Virus record (IMG/VR): IMGVR_UViG_3300034684_000217
Location: 1-25,661 of that record
DNA: 25,661 nt
Direction: 5' to 3' (one strand)
Source of the DNA: a virus
The position numbers and the translations under genes are program-made. This document shows positions 953 through 25,611 of the stretch, piece after piece (position 1 is the first letter of the stretch; each line of letters opens with the position of its first letter). The notes below the pieces were generated by a model that was not told where the DNA came from, ran no database searches, and worked only from the letters and a program-made list of their open reading frames with translations.

Positions 953-1696
953 ATGGGTAATAAAGACTCAAAAAATTTAAAAACAGAAATAAAAGAAGAT
1001 AAAATTAGAATCAAAGCTAAGGTATTTCGTAAGTTAATGCTCTTAGCTTTATTTTACGTTGCTGATGGTAAATTAGATGGGAGAACAAAGTTGCAAAAAA
1101 TTCCTTTCTTTTTCTTAAAAGAAGCTCTCAAAAGCGAAAAGTTAAATAGTCCTATTTTTAATTATATTAATTATGAACATGGACCTTATAGTAAGGAAAT
1201 GTATGAAGATGTCGAATACATGGAAATGCTAGAATTAGTAGAATCAAAAAATAAAGAAATTGAGTTGCATTCTGATCAAACTATTACAAACCAACAGATT
1301 TTTGTTTTAACTGATCTTGGTAAAAAAACCGCACAACATGTCTATAAATTTTTAAAAATTGCTGCTCCAGAAACAACAGAGATTCTTGAAAAAGTGGTTA
1401 AACAATATAAAAACTTAACAAATACACAACTTAAAAATATGTCTCATGAAACTGAAGAATATAAACAAACAAAATACGCAGAAAATATTTATTCGGTAAA
1501 AGATAATGCAGTTGTTGAGTTTGAAAAAACTTGGGAAGAATTGGAAAAAATTGACGAAGAGGTAACCGACGAAATTGAAGAATTAACTTTAGCTTTTGAT
1601 GATGAGTTTATAGATTTATTAAATCAATCATTTGAAGAACTAGAGTCTCCAACATTTGATAATTCTAATTCACTTGGTGATTCAAATGGCATTTGA
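953..1696 (+). CDS. Panacea/SocA-like (DUF4065-type) antitoxin candidate
   Basis: The start is the ATG at 953, 8 nt after GAGGGGG; TTG 929 and GTG 944 are less likely. The product is 247 residues. The N-terminal half carries features of the Panacea/SocA/YwgA-type fold: TKLQKIPFFFLKEA, then YEHGPYSKEMYEDVEY, a winged-helix-like LTDLGKK, and later ILEKVVKQY followed by LKNMSHET, matching the 'L..sH.T' end of the domain. Panacea domains are known as promiscuous antitoxins paired with unrelated toxins. The C-terminal 60 residues are very acidic (EELEKIDEEVTDEIEEL) and could be the toxin-binding part. The gene overlaps the next by 11 nt and has its own promoter and terminator. Family call moderate; antitoxin role inferred from family and gene pairing. 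Confidence 0.65.
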   Translation: MGNKDSKNLKTEIKEDKIRIKAKVFRKLMLLALFYVADGKLDGRTKLQKIPFFFLKEALKSEKLNSPIFNYINYEHGPYSKEMYEDVEYMEMLELVESKNKEIELHSDQTITNQQIFVLTDLGKKTAQHVYKFLKIAAPETTEILEKVVKQYKNLTNTQLKNMSHETEEYKQTKYAENIYSVKDNAVVEFEKTWEELEKIDEEVTDEIEELTLAFDDEFIDLLNQSFEELESPTFDNSNSLGDSNGI

Positions 1697-13062: not shown

Positions 13063-14235
13063 GTGGGCGTAGTTAAGATAGAAAATAGAGGGAAGAATTT
13101 GATTGATGCAGTATATTACGGAAGTGTTAGAGAGACAACAGGTGAAACTTTATTACAAAACCAAGAATATTCGCCAAATTATGCTATTGGCTCATATCAA
13201 ACACAGTGGCATGAGGTATTTACACAACCAATATATGTTATAGCTGGAAAAACTTATACTGTTTCATTTGAAATAGTTTTCAATCAGATAGGATATATTT
13301 TGTTGCGGATTTTTGAGTCTGATACTGAAAATTTTATTAATGGAAATGCTATTATTGCGAAATATATATATGATTCCGTAGTAACATATACGTTTACACC
13401 ATCAAAAAAATGGATAAAAATCGCAATGGCGTCGGGTACTGGTACAGTAATTTTTAAGAACATCCAACTTGAAGAAGGTGCGTCAGCTACACCATACGAA
13501 CCACCACTTGAGAACTACATAGATTTTAATCAAGAATTGTTCGGTTATAACGGTGTTTTTGACACTTTGACAGACGATGGAACATTGATAAAAAGATGGA
13601 ACAAAGAAATAGGAATAACAGTTTCTTCTGGTTCTTGTACTTTGGCAAAATCTGGAACAGGTACAGCAATCCTTGTAAACGAAATCAACGGTGAAGTTTA
13701 CGAAGGAACTGTTAGTGGAACAAGTTTATCTACTTCAGCACCAGACGGAACATACACCGTCATATACCAACTTGCTACACCAGAGATATCAACCGTTAGC
13801 TTCTCAGGAAGCGGACTTATCCTGGACAAAGGAGACAACAATATCATTCTCCCAGATTATGGTGTGATGGAACTCGAATACGAAGGAACAGGTACTTCAC
13901 AGGAAAGCTTAATTTACATGCAGGATTTACGCATTAGAGAAGAAGCTTCATACAGAGAGTATCAACCTGTTAATTCAAAATATACAAAGAGCATACAAAC
14001 GGGCAAGAGATATTCAATTAGCATTGGACAAGTCTATTTTGAAAGAAGCATGGCAGACAAACTTGATAAAGAGACACGCTTTACTCTGGAAGTTATTAAA
14101 CAAAACGAAGACGGTAGAACAGAAACAGATAGATACGTTAACTGCAGACTTGACAGTGTGGAAGAAACAGACAGCAACGGCCTTAGAATGGAAAGCGTTA
14201 GTATAACAGCTGAAGCTAAGGAAGTGGTAGCATGA
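13063..14235 (+). CDS. Tail protein with carbohydrate-binding-like and tube-like domains
   Basis: The start is GTG 13063, one base after the upstream stop, with GGGGTGA before it; GTG 13054 is the alternative. The product is about 390 residues. The N-terminal region has KIENRGKNLIDAVYYGS, a beta-sandwich, and the phage sugar-binding-module ending FKNIQLEEGASATPYEPP near residues 130-150. A second beta-rich segment (about 185-270) contains the Gly/Thr-rich SGTGTAILVNEINGEVYEG. The C-terminal 110 residues (YMQDLRIREEASYREYQPV ... MESVSITAEAKEVVA) look like a separate tail-tube-like barrel. The upstream frame is open for at least 60 nt before this start, so a split or fused origin with the previous gene is possible. 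It overlaps the next gene by 4 nt. Confidence 0.65.
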   Translation: MGVVKIENRGKNLIDAVYYGSVRETTGETLLQNQEYSPNYAIGSYQTQWHEVFTQPIYVIAGKTYTVSFEIVFNQIGYILLRIFESDTENFINGNAIIAKYIYDSVVTYTFTPSKKWIKIAMASGTGTVIFKNIQLEEGASATPYEPPLENYIDFNQELFGYNGVFDTLTDDGTLIKRWNKEIGITVSSGSCTLAKSGTGTAILVNEINGEVYEGTVSGTSLSTSAPDGTYTVIYQLATPEISTVSFSGSGLILDKGDNNIILPDYGVMELEYEGTGTSQESLIYMQDLRIREEASYREYQPVNSKYTKSIQTGKRYSISIGQVYFERSMADKLDKETRFTLEVIKQNEDGRTETDRYVNCRLDSVEETDSNGLRMESVSITAEAKEVVA

Positions 14236-14576
14236 AGACTATTGCAATAAATGCAAAACCACTGTTAGTTGAAGCGTATGAAACATATGAAGCCAGAACA
14301 ACCGCAAGATGGGTGAGAAATTCACTTACAGGAAAGCTGTATAAAGAAGAGAGATACGGCAAAACAGTAAGATATCACATTATTGAGGTAATAGTTGACA
14401 AAGAAACATTTGATTGGTTATTTGGCTTATATGAAGCTGGTGAACCTGTTAATTTACATGTAAACGGAAATGATGTTGAAGTTGTATTTACTGAAAATGA
14501 ATTCAGGCTTTCTTTAATTCCTGGAACGGACAGTTATGAGGGAACTATAGCATTTGAGGAAGTACAACCAATTTGA
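14232..14576 (+). CDS. Small tail protein, paralogue of the gene at 18783
   Basis: The ATG at 14232 overlaps the previous stop. The 114-residue beta-rich protein starts IAINAKPLLVEAYETYEAR and has a central helix KETFDWLFGLYEAGEPVNL and late strands ENEFRLSL and YEGTIAFEEV. It aligns along its length with the 101-residue protein encoded right after the tape measure. The shared points are IN(A/G)KPL(L/I)(V/I)E, a HI..I strand, (F/Y)(D/N)(W/F)L..L, a DV/SV strand and a terminal YE.T...EV. The similarity suggests a duplicated tail building block, perhaps tube-, Dit- or adaptor-like. No named family recognised. Confidence 0.65.
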   Translation: MKTIAINAKPLLVEAYETYEARTTARWVRNSLTGKLYKEERYGKTVRYHIIEVIVDKETFDWLFGLYEAGEPVNLHVNGNDVEVVFTENEFRLSLIPGTDSYEGTIAFEEVQPI

Positions 14577-14589
14577 AGGAGGGATTTTG

Positions 14590-15033
14590 GTGAGTAAGAT
14601 TATTAAACTTGATAAGTTAACTAAGGCTGATAAAGGGAGATTTGAACAGAAAAGCACAGTTAAGCTTGAATTACCAAGCGGGGAAATTTTAGAAATACCG
14701 ATTAAAGCTGTACCAATTAACATTCAGGATAAAGTTGCGGAATTATTCCCATATCCAGAAAAACCAAAGAGATTTAACAAACAAACAAGGCAATGGGAAT
14801 ACATTGAAACTGATGAATGGCAAGAAGAAGTGCAAAAAGTTGATGTAATGAGAACATATGCATTTGTGCTTATGGGAATTGATGAAGATAGGCTTCAAAT
14901 TGAGGGAGATACAGTACAGGAAAAGATAGAAACACTTATTGCAACAGGACTTCCAATGGGAGCATTTCTTGAAATAGCCAAAGCAATTCAAGAGCTTTCA
15001 ATGATTAGAGAGGACGAGTTTCGAAGAGGCTAA
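14590..15033 (+). CDS. Tail assembly chaperone, G part
   Basis: The start is the GTG at 14590, 6 nt after AAGGAGGG. The 147-residue product (SKIIKLDKLTKADKGRFEQKSTVKLELPSG ... IPIKAVPINIQDKVAELFP) lies immediately before the tape measure and resembles tail assembly chaperones of lambda gpG type. A helical second half follows (VDVMRTYAFVLMGIDEDRLQ, GAFLEIAKAIQELSMIRE). Chaperones of this class coat the tape measure during tail assembly and are made in a short and a frameshift-extended form. The stop TAA at 15031 lies inside an open +1 frame that encodes the extension described in the next entry. Confidence 0.8.
   Translation: MSKIIKLDKLTKADKGRFEQKSTVKLELPSGEILEIPIKAVPINIQDKVAELFPYPEKPKRFNKQTRQWEYIETDEWQEEVQKVDVMRTYAFVLMGIDEDRLQIEGDTVQEKIETLIATGLPMGAFLEIAKAIQELSMIREDEFRRG
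15019..15024 (+). promoter_or_regulatory. Candidate +1 slippery site TTT-CGA
   Basis: The shift must occur between a +1-frame TGA at 15002-15004 and the G-frame TAA at 15031-15033. Of the ten codons in that span only TTT (15019-15021), followed by C, allows the P-site tRNA to re-pair well one base on: Phe-tRNA moves from UUU to UUC. The A-site codon is CGA, often poorly decoded. No stimulating structure was worked out. Confidence 0.55.
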
Positions 15034-15244
15034 ACAGCTTCTTGGCGGTGAAAACTTAATCAATAATGAAGAAGCTCCGCTGTTGTATGCAATATTTGAC
15101 CTTGCAGCTGAATATTGGAAAACTCCGTTTGTATTTAACACATTGAGTAAAATGTCAAAGAAAGAGCTAACTTTTTGGCTTGCATACAGAGAGTTGCGGC
15201 ATGAGTTGGAACAGAAGAAGATAAATGAAGCTTCAAGGCGGTGA
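15020..15244 (+). CDS. Tail assembly chaperone T extension, reached by +1 frameshift
   Basis: A frame +1 to the G gene is open from 15005 to the TGA at 15242-15244 and has no start codon with a ribosome binding site near its beginning. Read after a shift at 15019-15022, it gives FEEAKQLLGGENLINN, then APLLYAIFDLAAEYW and LTFWLAYRELRHELEQKK. This is a helical T-type domain ending exactly at the tape measure start. The joined helix IREDEF-EEAKQLL is continuous in style. The GT product would be about 217 residues (14590 to 15244). In lambda, G and GT are both needed in a set ratio. The coding potential and position are clear; the frameshift itself is inferred. Confidence 0.75.
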   Translation, partial: FEEAKQLLGGENLINNEEAPLLYAIFDLAAEYWKTPFVFNTLSKMSKKELTFWLAYRELRHELEQKKINEASRR

Positions 15245-15249
15245 GATAC

Positions 15250-18200
15250 ATGGCAGAACATACACTTGAAGGAAAACTTAAGCTTGATATTTCTAATTTT
15301 CAAAAGAACCTGCAAAAAGCAAGAGAACAATTTAAAGAATTTACCAACCAGATAGCAAAGATAGGTGCGGCATCTGCTGCAGCTCTTGCAGGAATTACAG
15401 CTGTACTCAAAAAAAGTGCTGATGCATACGCAGAACAAGAAAGAGCAGTAGCTAAACTAAATGCAGCTTTAAAAGCACAAGGCAGTTATACAGAAGCTTT
15501 ATCCAGAGATTTGCAAAACTTTGCTGCACAAATGCAACAAATAACTATCTTTGGTGATGAAGTAATAGAAGAAGCAATGAGTATGATGGCAACGTTTGGG
15601 CTTACTGGTGAAGAATTGAAACAGGCAACCAAAGCTGCTTTAGATTTGGCTTCTGCATATGGTATAGACCTATCAACGGCTGCATTTCTATTAGGTAAAG
15701 CTCATGAAGGTGTTACAGACACACTTACAAGATATGGAATTATTTTAGATGAAAACATAGATAAAAATAAAAAGTTTGAAGAAGTAATTAAAAGAATAAA
15801 CGAGAAAATAGGCGGGCAAGCTGAAGTTGTAGGAAATACACTTTACGGTGCAATGGAAAAAGCTAAAAACGCTTTTGGTGATTTATTTGAAACAATAGGT
15901 CAAATATTTGCACCAGAAATTAGAAAAGTTGCTGATTTTATTACAAACTTTTCCTTAGCATTCCAGAACCTTTCACAACCAAGCAAAGACGCACTTAAAC
16001 AATTAACATTAGTTGGCATTCAACTTCTAACGCTTGGTAGTGTTTTTGGCATGCTTGCACTGATGATAAAAGGCTTTGGTTGGACGTGGAGTACTATAAT
16101 GGGACTTATTACCAATCCGTGGACGTTGCTTGTTGGATTAATAGCATTGGGTGCTGGAATTATCATAACGCATTGGGACGAAATTAAAACAGCACTTCAA
16201 CCACTGTACGAAAAAATAGTTGATATTGTAGACAAAATAAAAGAAAAAATGACTGAATTTCAATCTGGGCTAAAAGAAGGTTGGAAAGGTACCTACGATG
16301 ATTTAAAATCCATCTGGGATAATCCAGATCTATCATTCCTGGAAAAAGTAGGTGCTTCAATAGGTTTAATTGCAAGCAAGATTTTTAATGGCGATGAAGC
16401 AAAAGGATATGAAGGACTTGGCACAATATGGAAAAAAGCATGGGACAACCTTGTTGAAGTGTGGCAAAATCCTGATCTTTCAATGTTTGACAAGATAAAA
16501 GCTACAATTGCAGGTGTAGCACTTGCAACATGGATGAGTGCAAGAACAATAGGGGCTGCACTTACTGATGCATTTGGTGGCGACGTAAAACAATATCTTG
16601 ATTCAGTCGATACAGCTTTAAAAAACATTACAACTTCCTGGAAGGATTTTAAAGAAGGAATTACAACAGGCGATTGGTCAAAAGCATTCAGTTCGTTCGT
16701 AGATCTTGCAAAAGAATTGTATAACTTACCAGCAACATTTGTATTAAGTGGGTTTAAACTTGCAGAAGATTTTGACAAAACTCCTCTTGACAACTTAGCT
16801 AATATGATTGCTACAGTTCTTGGTGCGAAGTTAATGACAGGAAGCTGGAGAATAGGTCTTGCTCTTGCATTGCTTGCTGATTTTGTGTTTGGCAGTGAAT
16901 GGACTGGAAATAAATGGCAAGATGAGTTAATAAAAGCTGCTGAATCTGTAGGATTCTCATTGTTGCTATTTGGCACTAAACTTGCAATACCGATAGGAAT
17001 TAGTTTGTATTTTATGCAAGACTTAGTTAAAGGAACTGGCAACAGACAAGCAGCCATGAACGCTTGGCGTGCATGGAAAGAATACATGGAATTAGGGAAA
17101 ACAGAAGTGTTAGAAGAATGGGCAAAGGAAACAGGAAAAATACCGATTACAGGTTTCATGTTTAAACCTTCAGAAGTTCAACTTGATAATCTTGCACAAC
17201 AAGCACTGGAAGAATTTCAAAAAAATTTTGATAACCTTTCTTTCTTCAATAAAGGCTTTATTTTGGGTGAAACTTTTGCCCTTGGGTTTTATTATGGTTT
17301 GCAAAGCTGGAGTACAAAGATTAATAATTACCTGGAAAACAGCTTCTTAGGTAAATGGATAGATAAGTTAATTAGCAATGGCAAAAAAACTGGTGGATTT
17401 GTAAATAAACATCCAGCAGGTGGTGGCAAAGAAACAGAAGGATTTTCTCAATATGCCGAAGGTGGATTTACTGGGATAGGTCCACTTGACGATATAGCAG
17501 GCGTTGTACACCGTGGAGAGTATGTTATCCCCGCCTGGATGGTCAAGAAAAATCCTGCTCTTGTAATGGCACTTGAAAGAATCAGAAAAAGGGGGTTTCA
17601 ACAAGGCGGCGGAGACGTAAATCTTAACGATGCTTTTGGTAAATCCCTTGATATGTTTGTAAACGTAATGGATGGACTTGTAAATACGTTCGAACCAATG
17701 GTAGATATATTCAACAAACTCATAGAAGGATTAAGTAAATTAGCTGAGAAATATGATTTCTTACAACCACTTGCAGAGCTCGGACAAACTGTTGCAACAA
17801 GTTTTGATGCAATGAAAGGAAGCGTTGACGCACTAAAAGAATTAAAACAAAACATGATAGATCTGAAAAATGCGGTGACCGGAGAAGTGCAACAAGAAGG
17901 AGAAACAGTTCCGGCTACACTGTTACAGAGATGGCAAAATTGGTTTGATGATCTATTTCAAACAGGGCAAGATAAATGGACAGAAGGCTTTGGAGAATTC
18001 TTCAAATTCCTTATGTCTAAGGGCGATGCATTTGCTACAAACGTAATTGATACAGTAGTTGTTGCATTGAACAATGTAAAATCATTCATTGAAAACTTTG
18101 ATTTTAACGCATTTGTTGATAATGTCAAATCTGGTGCAAAGAATTTCATAGAAGGGTTTAAAAATATCAATTGGAAAAATATGCTTTCAAACATGGGCAT

Positions 18201-18783
18201 GGGATTGCTCCAAGGAATAGGAACAATTGTTTCAGGTGTAACATATGGATTGGGAATGTTGGTTACTAGTATCATTTCTGTGTCTGATTTCTTTGCAGGA
18301 CTATCAAAGGCGTTAGAACCAATTGCTAACAAACTGAGCAAAATATTTGAAACAGTAGGATATTTGGTAGGGCAATCGCTCGCACCTATTTTAGAAATAC
18401 TTATACCAATACTTAACCATGTAGCAAAAGGCTTTATGATGATTTACAACATTGCAATTCTACCGTTTATAAAACTAGTAGCATCTGCATACAATGCACT
18501 TGCAAGTGCAATTAACGCTGTATTTGGTTGGCTTGGAATACGTCTTGAACTTATCAGACTTCAAAACATTGAACCACTTTCAATGGAAGAATACGAAGCA
18601 AGAAGCGAATTTGAATCTCCAGAAGGTGCAGGAAGAAGTTCTTGGAGTGCTGGTGGTAGTTCTACCGTATACAATTACATCACTTACAATATCACAGCAC
18701 ACGTGGTTGATGATGATGGTATTAAATGGCTTTATAATGAGCTAAAGAAATATGAGGCTCGACTAGAGGCAGGTGGTAGCTAA
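15250..18783 (+). CDS. Tail tape measure protein
   Basis: The start is ATG 15250, after AAGGCGGTGA, rather than the GTG at 15241. The product of about 1177 residues is the largest but one in the window. It has an N-terminal coiled coil (FQKNLQKAREQFKEFTNQIAKIG), a TMP-type core (about 75-180, FAAQMQQITIFGDEVIEEAMSMM), and hydrophobic membrane-like stretches near residues 251-307, 528-593, 990-1015 and 1036-1095. It also has the common tape-measure motif YAEGGFTGIGPLDDIAGVVHRGEYVIP near 734-760. A short repeat occurs twice about 49 residues apart: IWDNPDLSFLEKVGASI at 353 and VWQNPDLSMFDKIKATI at 402. It fixes tail length and helps carry DNA through the envelope. It follows the chaperone and overlaps the next start by one base. 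Confidence 0.93.
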   Translation: MAEHTLEGKLKLDISNFQKNLQKAREQFKEFTNQIAKIGAASAAALAGITAVLKKSADAYAEQERAVAKLNAALKAQGSYTEALSRDLQNFAAQMQQITIFGDEVIEEAMSMMATFGLTGEELKQATKAALDLASAYGIDLSTAAFLLGKAHEGVTDTLTRYGIILDENIDKNKKFEEVIKRINEKIGGQAEVVGNTLYGAMEKAKNAFGDLFETIGQIFAPEIRKVADFITNFSLAFQNLSQPSKDALKQLTLVGIQLLTLGSVFGMLALMIKGFGWTWSTIMGLITNPWTLLVGLIALGAGIIITHWDEIKTALQPLYEKIVDIVDKIKEKMTEFQSGLKEGWKGTYDDLKSIWDNPDLSFLEKVGASIGLIASKIFNGDEAKGYEGLGTIWKKAWDNLVEVWQNPDLSMFDKIKATIAGVALATWMSARTIGAALTDAFGGDVKQYLDSVDTALKNITTSWKDFKEGITTGDWSKAFSSFVDLAKELYNLPATFVLSGFKLAEDFDKTPLDNLANMIATVLGAKLMTGSWRIGLALALLADFVFGSEWTGNKWQDELIKAAESVGFSLLLFGTKLAIPIGISLYFMQDLVKGTGNRQAAMNAWRAWKEYMELGKTEVLEEWAKETGKIPITGFMFKPSEVQLDNLAQQALEEFQKNFDNLSFFNKGFILGETFALGFYYGLQSWSTKINNYLENSFLGKWIDKLISNGKKTGGFVNKHPAGGGKETEGFSQYAEGGFTGIGPLDDIAGVVHRGEYVIPAWMVKKNPALVMALERIRKRGFQQGGGDVNLNDAFGKSLDMFVNVMDGLVNTFEPMVDIFNKLIEGLSKLAEKYDFLQPLAELGQTVATSFDAMKGSVDALKELKQNMIDLKNAVTGEVQQEGETVPATLLQRWQNWFDDLFQTGQDKWTEGFGEFFKFLMSKGDAFATNVIDTVVVALNNVKSFIENFDFNAFVDNVKSGAKNFIEGFKNINWKNMLSNMGMGLLQGIGTIVSGVTYGLGMLVTSIISVSDFFAGLSKALEPIANKLSKIFETVGYLVGQSLAPILEILIPILNHVAKGFMMIYNIAILPFIKLVASAYNALASAINAVFGWLGIRLELIRLQNIEPLSMEEYEARSEFESPEGAGRSSWSAGGSSTVYNYITYNITAHVVDDDGIKWLYNELKKYEARLEAGGS

Positions 18784-25534: not shown

Positions 25535-25611
25535 TGGTCTGGGCGGTGGGACTTGAACCCACGACCTCCAGATCCCGATTCTGGCGTTCTAGCCAACTGA
25601 ACTACGCCCAG
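25535..25611 (-). tRNA. tRNA-Pro (anticodon CGG), CCA encoded
   Basis: The minus strand folds into a complete cloverleaf. The acceptor CTGGGCG pairs with CGCCCAG, with a D arm GTTC/GAAC and anticodon stem CCAGA/TCTGG around the loop ATCGGGA, giving anticodon CGG. The T arm is GTGGG-TTCAAGT-CCCAC, discriminator A. The 3' CCA is encoded (complement at 25535-25537). Length is 77 nt with CCA. It decodes CCG proline codons. Its 3' end faces the prophage, as expected if the phage integrated there and restored the gene. Confidence 0.97.

What the first reader, a model, noticed from the sequence alone, without database searches (positions are those of the whole stretch)
15002..15244. Unannotated +1 frameshift extension of the tail assembly chaperone
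An open frame after the G gene has no usable start yet encodes a T-like helical domain and ends exactly at the tape measure. The overlap window is only 15005-15033. TTT-C followed by CGA is the only site where a +1 slip gives a perfect codon match (UUU to UUC). Lambda uses -1 at the same place, so this would be a different recoding solution.
Basis: partly seen in the sequence, partly recalled or inferred. Interest (0 to 1): 0.62.

Follow-up and report, generated by a model that had tools for sequence, protein, structure and literature searches.

The report
Forward frameshift makes phage tail chaperone
A virus of heat-loving bacteria very probably makes the long form of its tail-building helper protein by letting the ribosome slip one base forward at TTT-C, a slip site of the kind best known from influenza virus, where most tailed phages slip one base backward.

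Summary
In the window a 79-codon frame (15005-15241, stop 15242-15244) with no start codon near its beginning overlaps the end of a G-like gene and ends on the tape-measure start. TTT-C at 15019-15022 is the only one of 10 possible P-site codons that re-pairs after a +1 slip. An independent Thermotogota prophage (G 51%, T 47% identical) has the same arrangement with TTT-C in the aligned codon. A CRISPR spacer against that T gene differs from it only at synonymous third positions of the T frame. A fused G-T profile matches Pfam TAC_5 (XkdN-like) chaperones, which in 20 of 20 readable loci reach T by -1 at A_AAA_AAC. So the fusion is conserved and the recoding differs. TTT-C also sits at the junction in 5 of 5 methanogen-type virus chaperones, 9 of 9 haloarchaeal ones examined, and one Bacillota prophage, where the nonamer equals influenza PA-X (UCC_UUU_CGU). 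TTT-CGC was already proposed in print for HF1-group haloviruses; I found no report for bacterial phages. Best reading: low-level +1 frameshifting at UUU_C makes a G-T tail assembly chaperone. A -2 shift cannot be excluded without peptides.

The parts
14576..14583 (+). Shine-Dalgarno-like AAGGAGGG in front of G
   Evidence: read directly; 6 nt before GTG 14590
14590..15033 (+). G-like tail assembly chaperone, 147 aa, GTG start, TAA stop 15031-15033
   Evidence: homolog 51% identical in a Thermotogota genome; fused profile matches TAC_5
15002..15004 (+). last stop (TGA) in the T frame, upstream limit of the shift window
15005..15033 (+). overlap of the G and T frames in which the shift must happen
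15019..15022 (+). TTT_C, proposed +1 slip site (P-site UUU re-pairs as UUC)
   Evidence: only re-pairable codon of 10 in the overlap; TTTC in the aligned codon of L008
15022..15024 (+). CGA, zero-frame A-site codon during the slip
   Evidence: CGA 3.2 per 1000 codons in window genes, new-frame GAA 60.5
15023..15244 (+). T domain coding, 73 aa after the shift plus TGA 15242-15244
   Evidence: helical AlphaFold2 model, pLDDT 72
15024..15043 (+). 8-bp hairpin just 3' of the slip site; not conserved in the relative, role doubtful
   Evidence: z -2.73 in the window, no counterpart in L008 (z 0.38)
15241..18783 (+). tape measure protein, GTG overlapping the T stop
   Evidence: PHROG tape-measure families, best E 6.8e-24
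14232..14576 (+). small conserved gene in front of G (52% identical in the relative), function not assigned

Best explanation
The pair 14590-15244 is a tail assembly chaperone gene expressed as two proteins. Most ribosomes stop at TAA 15031 and give G (147 aa). A small fraction pause with tRNA-Phe on UUU 15019-15021 in the P site and the poorly used CGA codon in the A site. The tRNA slips one base forward onto UUC, GAA is read next, and a G-T fusion of 217 aa results. By analogy with lambda gpG/gpGT (inferred, not tested), the G part coats the tape measure and the T part recruits the tail tube subunit. Shown: frames, absence of a start for T near its beginning, the single re-pairable site, TTTC in the aligned codon of a diverged relative, coding constraint on T, profile homology of the fusion to TAC_5 chaperones. 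Inferred: that the shift is +1 rather than -2, its efficiency, and the function.
For: Frames and the unique site. Independent prophage with the same layout, T also without a start until 26 residues from its end, TTTC aligned at the junction REDEF|EEAKQLLGG / DQEQF|NNALELLGG. T-frame constraint: spacer versus L008 T, 5 of 5 differences synonymous third positions; window versus L008 T, differences by codon position 27/14/54 over 70 codons. Fused profile versus TAC_5 fusion: P 3.8e-6 with 60 column shuffles far below, repeated with another alignment, P 4.2e-5. The only hit of the fused profile in 398 Bacillota-side genomes was a TAC_5 gene. Foldseek ranks YqbN first and the HK97 chaperone fourth, both at weak E-values. 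TTT_C at the junction in 16 of 16 +1-type genes plus a Bacillota prophage found blind to the motif.
Against: No protein, reporter or ribosome-profiling data. One close relative only. The A-site codon of the relative is CAA, which is common in the window's own genes (24.8 per 1000), though among the rarer codons in a sample of the relative's host genome (8.0 per 1000). No stimulatory structure or Shine-Dalgarno-like stretch is common to both phages (and reading). G alone and T alone score low against TAC_5 (prob 7.6 and 3.1); only the fusion scores well. Window group versus Hafunaviridae is not above shuffles, so the shared TTT_C there may be convergence. Deposited notes on haloarchaeal relatives say -2.
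Confidence: 0.85

Rival explanations
1. T is reached by a -2 shift near the same place, as in phage Mu gpGT and as the depositors of several haloarchaeal viruses wrote; the fusion then carries one extra residue.
For: -2 and +1 reach the same frame; deposited notes on HRTV-14, -15, -25, -27 say putative -2; Mu uses -2 according to PMC3498833 (passages).
Against: Moving back two bases from TTT gives AGT here and AGT in the AAG_TTT haloarchaeal sites, so tRNA-Phe would not re-pair (read), whereas the forward step gives UUC every time. For the same tetramer in influenza PA-X the sequenced peptide was +1 (PMC3498833, passages).
Confidence: 0.07
2. T is translated on its own from a non-standard or internal start, or by reinitiation after the G stop.
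For: Short overlaps often couple translation; TTG 15083 and ATC 15059 exist in the T frame.
Against: In L008 the first start codon of T is TTG with 26 residues left, after the conserved LLGG...DIAAEYW stretch. Drs3 has none until 5 residues from the end. The fused product, not T alone, aligns with TAC_5.
Confidence: 0.04
3. Sequencing error or decaying gene: G and T were one gene and the frame break is accidental.
For: The window is a single uncultivated-virus record.
Against: The same break with TTTC stands in a separate prophage, 51%/47% identical. The T frame is under purifying selection. In homologous TAC_5 genes the break is universal but in the other direction (20 of 20).
Confidence: 0.02
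4. The shift is +1 but not by re-pairing at TTT_C, for example by occlusion at another codon of the overlap.
For: Some +1 shifts occur without P-site re-pairing (PMC12661321, start of abstract in the search listing, for yeast).
Against: TTT_C is the only codon that re-pairs in the window and is shared with L008; 16 of 16 related-type genes carry it within the last 10 codons.
Confidence: 0.02

Closest known systems
Phage lambda gpG/gpGT tail assembly chaperones (reviewed in PMC5009743, passages)
   Same: Position between tail genes and tape measure; short G, T without its own start, T frame ending at the tape measure.
   Different: Lambda shifts -1; here the frames demand +1 (or -2) and the site is TTT_C. 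No sequence match to a lambda-type family.
Pfam PF08890 Phage_TAC_5 (XkdN/YqbN-like) chaperones of Bacillota
   Same: Fused profiles align through the junction (EFEEAKQLL with LVEEVKNLI); Foldseek first hit is YqbN.
   Different: 20 of 20 readable loci shift -1 at A_AAA_AAC. The window proteins do not pass Pfam cut-offs.
HF1-group / Hafunaviridae haloarchaeal tail assembly chaperones with TTT-CGC (PMC7230728, passages; HSTV-2 +1 in PMC5009743, passages)
   Same: +1 frame, TTT_CGN near the G stop in 9 of 9 records examined.
   Different: Archaeal myoviruses; no significant profile match to the window group.
Influenza A PA-X +1 site UCC_UUU_CGU (PMC3498833, passages)
   Same: P-site UUU to UUC, A-site CGN in the window.
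   Different: Unrelated gene, eukaryotic ribosome; the window's E-site codon is GAG, not UCC (UCC_UUU_CGU does occur in the Bacillota prophage L093).
Listeria phage PSA/A118/A500 +1 sites CCC_UGA (PMC5009743, passages)
   Same: +1 frameshift in a phage tail gene by P-site slippage.
   Different: Major tail protein, proline codon before a stop.

Membership tests
Frameshifted tail assembly chaperone pair (lambda G/GT type) | Two small overlapping frames directly before the tape measure gene | tested here: met
Frameshifted tail assembly chaperone pair (lambda G/GT type) | Second frame lacks its own start and is conserved as protein | tested here: met
Frameshifted tail assembly chaperone pair (lambda G/GT type) | G and GT products in unequal ratio, acting on tape measure and tube protein | not testable with these tools
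   needs protein work
Pfam PF08890 Phage_TAC_5 | Score above the curated family cut-off | tested here: not met
   no PF08890 hit at E <= 1 or E <= 10; 0 of 103 Thermotogota genomes above cut-off
Pfam PF08890 Phage_TAC_5 | Remote homology of the whole fusion | tested here: met
   hhalign P 3.8e-6, score 32.7 against a maximum of 13.9 in 60 shuffles; second alignment 37.5 against 25.2 in 40
Pfam PF08890 Phage_TAC_5 | -1 shift at A_AAA_AAC at the junction | tested here: not met
   T is in the +1 frame in the window while 20 of 20 readable TAC_5 loci are -1
UUU_C class of +1 shift sites (PA-X type) | In-frame UUU_C in the overlap, T in the +1 frame | tested here: met
   L008
UUU_C class of +1 shift sites (PA-X type) | A-site CGN | tested here: met
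   CGA in the window, but CAA in L008 and CAT or CCT in named methanogen viruses, so CGN is not general
UUU_C class of +1 shift sites (PA-X type) | Direction proven by the junction peptide | not testable with these tools
   needs mass spectrometry

The most novel reading that the evidence does not exclude
UUU_C is an old and widespread +1 frameshift site of tail assembly chaperones in viruses of both bacteria and archaea. Homologous chaperones keep the same G-T fusion at almost the same residue while the recoding switches between -1 (A_AAA_AAC, Bacillota TAC_5) and +1 (UUU_C, Thermotogota phages, methanogen and haloarchaeal viruses, at least one Bacillota prophage). The same tetramer, in one prophage the same nonamer, was adopted by influenza virus, so slipperiness of tRNA-Phe on UUU_C would be a property of ribosomes in all three domains.
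Probability: 0.6. Interest if true: 0.66.

Novelty: new variant of a known kind. Interest (0 to 1): 0.52.

Why it matters
It gives a bacterial case for the UUU_C class of +1 shift sites that was predicted from influenza virus, and shows a homologous fusion protein kept while the direction of frameshifting changed. That makes the evolution of recoding testable in simple reporters, and it corrects annotation: T is missing as a gene in the methanogen virus records examined, and several haloarchaeal records carry a -2 label that the sequence does not favour.

Tried and rejected
Family scans of G and T gave no usable Pfam, PHROG or NCBIfam hit. tblastn of G or T against 50,697 phage records found nothing. 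Pattern scans with G or T alone found nothing in viral contigs, and G found no relative in genome contigs. T-profile hits other than L008 and the CRISPR spacer (11 genomes, E 0.007 to 0.08) were judged by score and frame only and set aside. A conserved 3' RNA structure was rejected: hairpin z -2.73 in the window, 0.38 in L008. A conserved Shine-Dalgarno-like stimulator was rejected on reading: AGAGAGGA stands before the site in the window, nothing alike in L008. Requiring CGN in the A site was rejected (CAA, CAT, CCT occur). L009, a prophage with a 92% identical terminase, has a different tail module and no re-pairable site in its overlap. Of the seven tape-measure relatives L072-L078, two (L077, L078) are +1 with TTT_C; L072 and L074 look -1 from their frames; L073, L075 and L076 were not resolved. 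Window group versus Hafunaviridae homology was not significant. One search drew the same kind of genome set as 46, gave the same single hit and adds nothing.

Full report
What is there. The window is an IMG/VR virus record of 25,661 bases with a head-to-tail gene order. The record's terminase is 91% identical to one on a contig titled Thermotoga sp. MAG, so a Thermotogota host is likely (inference). G runs from GTG 14590 to TAA 15031-15033. In the next frame, 15005-15244 is open between TGA 15002-15004 and TGA 15242-15244, and the tape measure starts with GTG at 15241 (tape measure by PHROG, best E 6.8e-24). The first start codon in the T frame leaves 53 of 79 residues. Among the 10 codons from which a forward slip can reach T, only TTT 15019 re-pairs, as TTC.

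A relative. G was found in 1 of 103 genomes of the phylum (locus L008, also IMG/VR UViG_2645727976, identical over 3,438 bases). Its contig is 2,169,170 bases long, which from memory matches Kosmotoga pacifica; this name comes from no sequence search. G is 51% and T 47% identical. The layout is the same: zero-frame ...GAC CAA GAA CAG TTT CAA TAA, T frame open from 1907, no start codon until TTG 2072 with 26 residues left. TTTC falls in the aligned codon: REDEF|EEAKQLLGG and DQEQF|NNALELLGG. Of 12 possible P-site codons in L008, TTT is the one that re-pairs with the same tRNA; AAA to AAC at 1906 shares two bases but not a tRNA class.

T is translated. Over 70 aligned T codons the two phages differ at codon positions 1/2/3 in 27/14/54 places. 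A third, unknown phage is sampled by a CRISPR spacer in another Thermotogota genome (G019, locus L027, 46 repeats): it matches L008 T in 32 of 37 bases, and all 5 differences are synonymous third positions of the T frame.

What the protein is. No family library recognises G or T above cut-off. The fused profile A3 hit 1 of 398 Bacillota-side genomes (E 1.3e-4); that gene is PF08890 Phage_TAC_5 (E 1.9e-39). I then collected TAC_5 genes (18 of 149 genomes, 21 loci). Of these 21, 20 gave a readable G (L066 did not), and all 20 carry T in the -1 frame with AAAAAAC at the junction. Profile comparison of the fusions: probability 73, P 3.8e-6, score 32.7, 60 column shuffles reaching at most 13.9, aligned through the junction EFEEAKQLL / LVEEVKNLI. 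With a second alignment: 69.6, P 4.2e-5, score 37.5, 40 shuffles at most 25.2. G or T alone score low (7.6 and 3.1). An AlphaFold2 model of G (pLDDT 68) finds YqbN (3klu) first and HK97 chaperone (2ob9) fourth among 350,542 chains, at E 0.29 and 0.53, so a lead only. T models as helices 18-30, 35-43 and 46-72 (pLDDT 72).

Other chaperones with TTT_C. HSTV-2 is cited as very likely +1 (PMC5009743, passages). Its annotated overlap holds UCC_UUU_CGC. Of 53 records similar to its G I examined 9 including HSTV-2: TTT_CGC or TTT_CGT is in the overlap of all 9. Dyall-Smith and others (PMC7230728, abstract and passages) already proposed TTT-CGC for the HF1 group, citing influenza and amalgavirus work. 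A tape-measure scan led to two metagenome viruses (L077, L078) with AAC_TTT_CGC. Their relatives PhiF3, vir075 and Drs3 carry TTT_CAT, TTT_CCT and TTT_CCT with T in the +1 frame, and no T gene is annotated in those three records. As a test blind to the motif, a profile of that group's G found one Bacillota prophage (G223, L093, E 1.1e-21; 2 of 398 genomes, the other a 912-aa frame that I did not pursue): its junction is AAA_TCC_TTT_CGT, the nonamer of PA-X, with T in the +1 frame for 63 codons past the stop.

Counts. In 16 +1-type genes (window, L008, five methanogen-type, nine haloarchaeal; several near-identical, so fewer independent lineages) TTT_C occurs once in the last 10 codons of each, 16 of 160, against 2 of 2324 codons before. 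In the 20 -1-type genes it occurs in 0 of 200. L093 came later and is not in this count. Methanogen-type versus haloarchaeal fusions are clearly homologous (P 8.9e-12); methanogen-type versus TAC_5 also (P 7.5e-8); window group versus methanogen-type weakly (probability 26.6, P 6.9e-4, above shuffles); window group versus haloarchaeal not above shuffles.

Mechanism. UUU read by tRNA-Phe re-pairs with UUC one base on; the waiting codon is CGA, 3.2 per 1000 in the window's genes against 19.9 for AGA, and the new-frame codon GAA is frequent at 60.5. In L008 the waiting codon is CAA, 8.0 per 1000 in a 100-kb sample of its genome, where CGA is 4.9. This fits the P-site slippage model with a slow A site that was worked out for PA-X (PMC3498833, passages). 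No RNA structure is shared. A -2 shift would give the same frame but does not re-pair.

Literature limits. I used ten full-text searches. The ones aimed at the motif (55, 65, 89, 129) returned influenza, plant viruses and the HF1-group paper among their listings; none of the listed titles reported UUU_C in a bacterial tail chaperone. PRFect (PMC10885494, passages) states that actinophage (SEA-PHAGES) data hold both -1 and +1 annotated shifts, so +1 as such is not new in bacteria. The library lacks most subscription journals.

Verdict. It is a bacterial variant of a known kind of recoding, with a wider pattern that deserves a test.

Noticed in passing
[quoted passage not shown]
   Followed up: partly
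L086, L087, L088 (PhiF3, vir075, Drs3): A conserved T frame after the chaperone gene, reached through TTT_C, is not annotated in these records.
   Followed up: partly
L041, L043, L045, L046: Deposited notes say -2 frameshift for haloarchaeal chaperones although the overlap favours +1 at TTT_CGN.
   Followed up: partly
L027 about 1516-1552, minus strand: CRISPR array of 46 repeats in a Thermotogota genome with a spacer against the T gene of an L008-like phage.
   Followed up: yes
L009 17871-18702: Prophage with 92% identical terminase but another tail module; a +1-frame ORF overlaps the gene two before its tape measure with a GTG start and no re-pairable codon.
   Followed up: partly
window 25535-25611: tRNA-Pro (anticodon cgg) on the minus strand at the right end, possibly the integration site or host flank.
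   Followed up: no
L049-L069: TAC_5 chaperones of Bacillota: AAAAAAC at the G end and T in the -1 frame in 20 of 20 readable loci of 21.
   Followed up: yes
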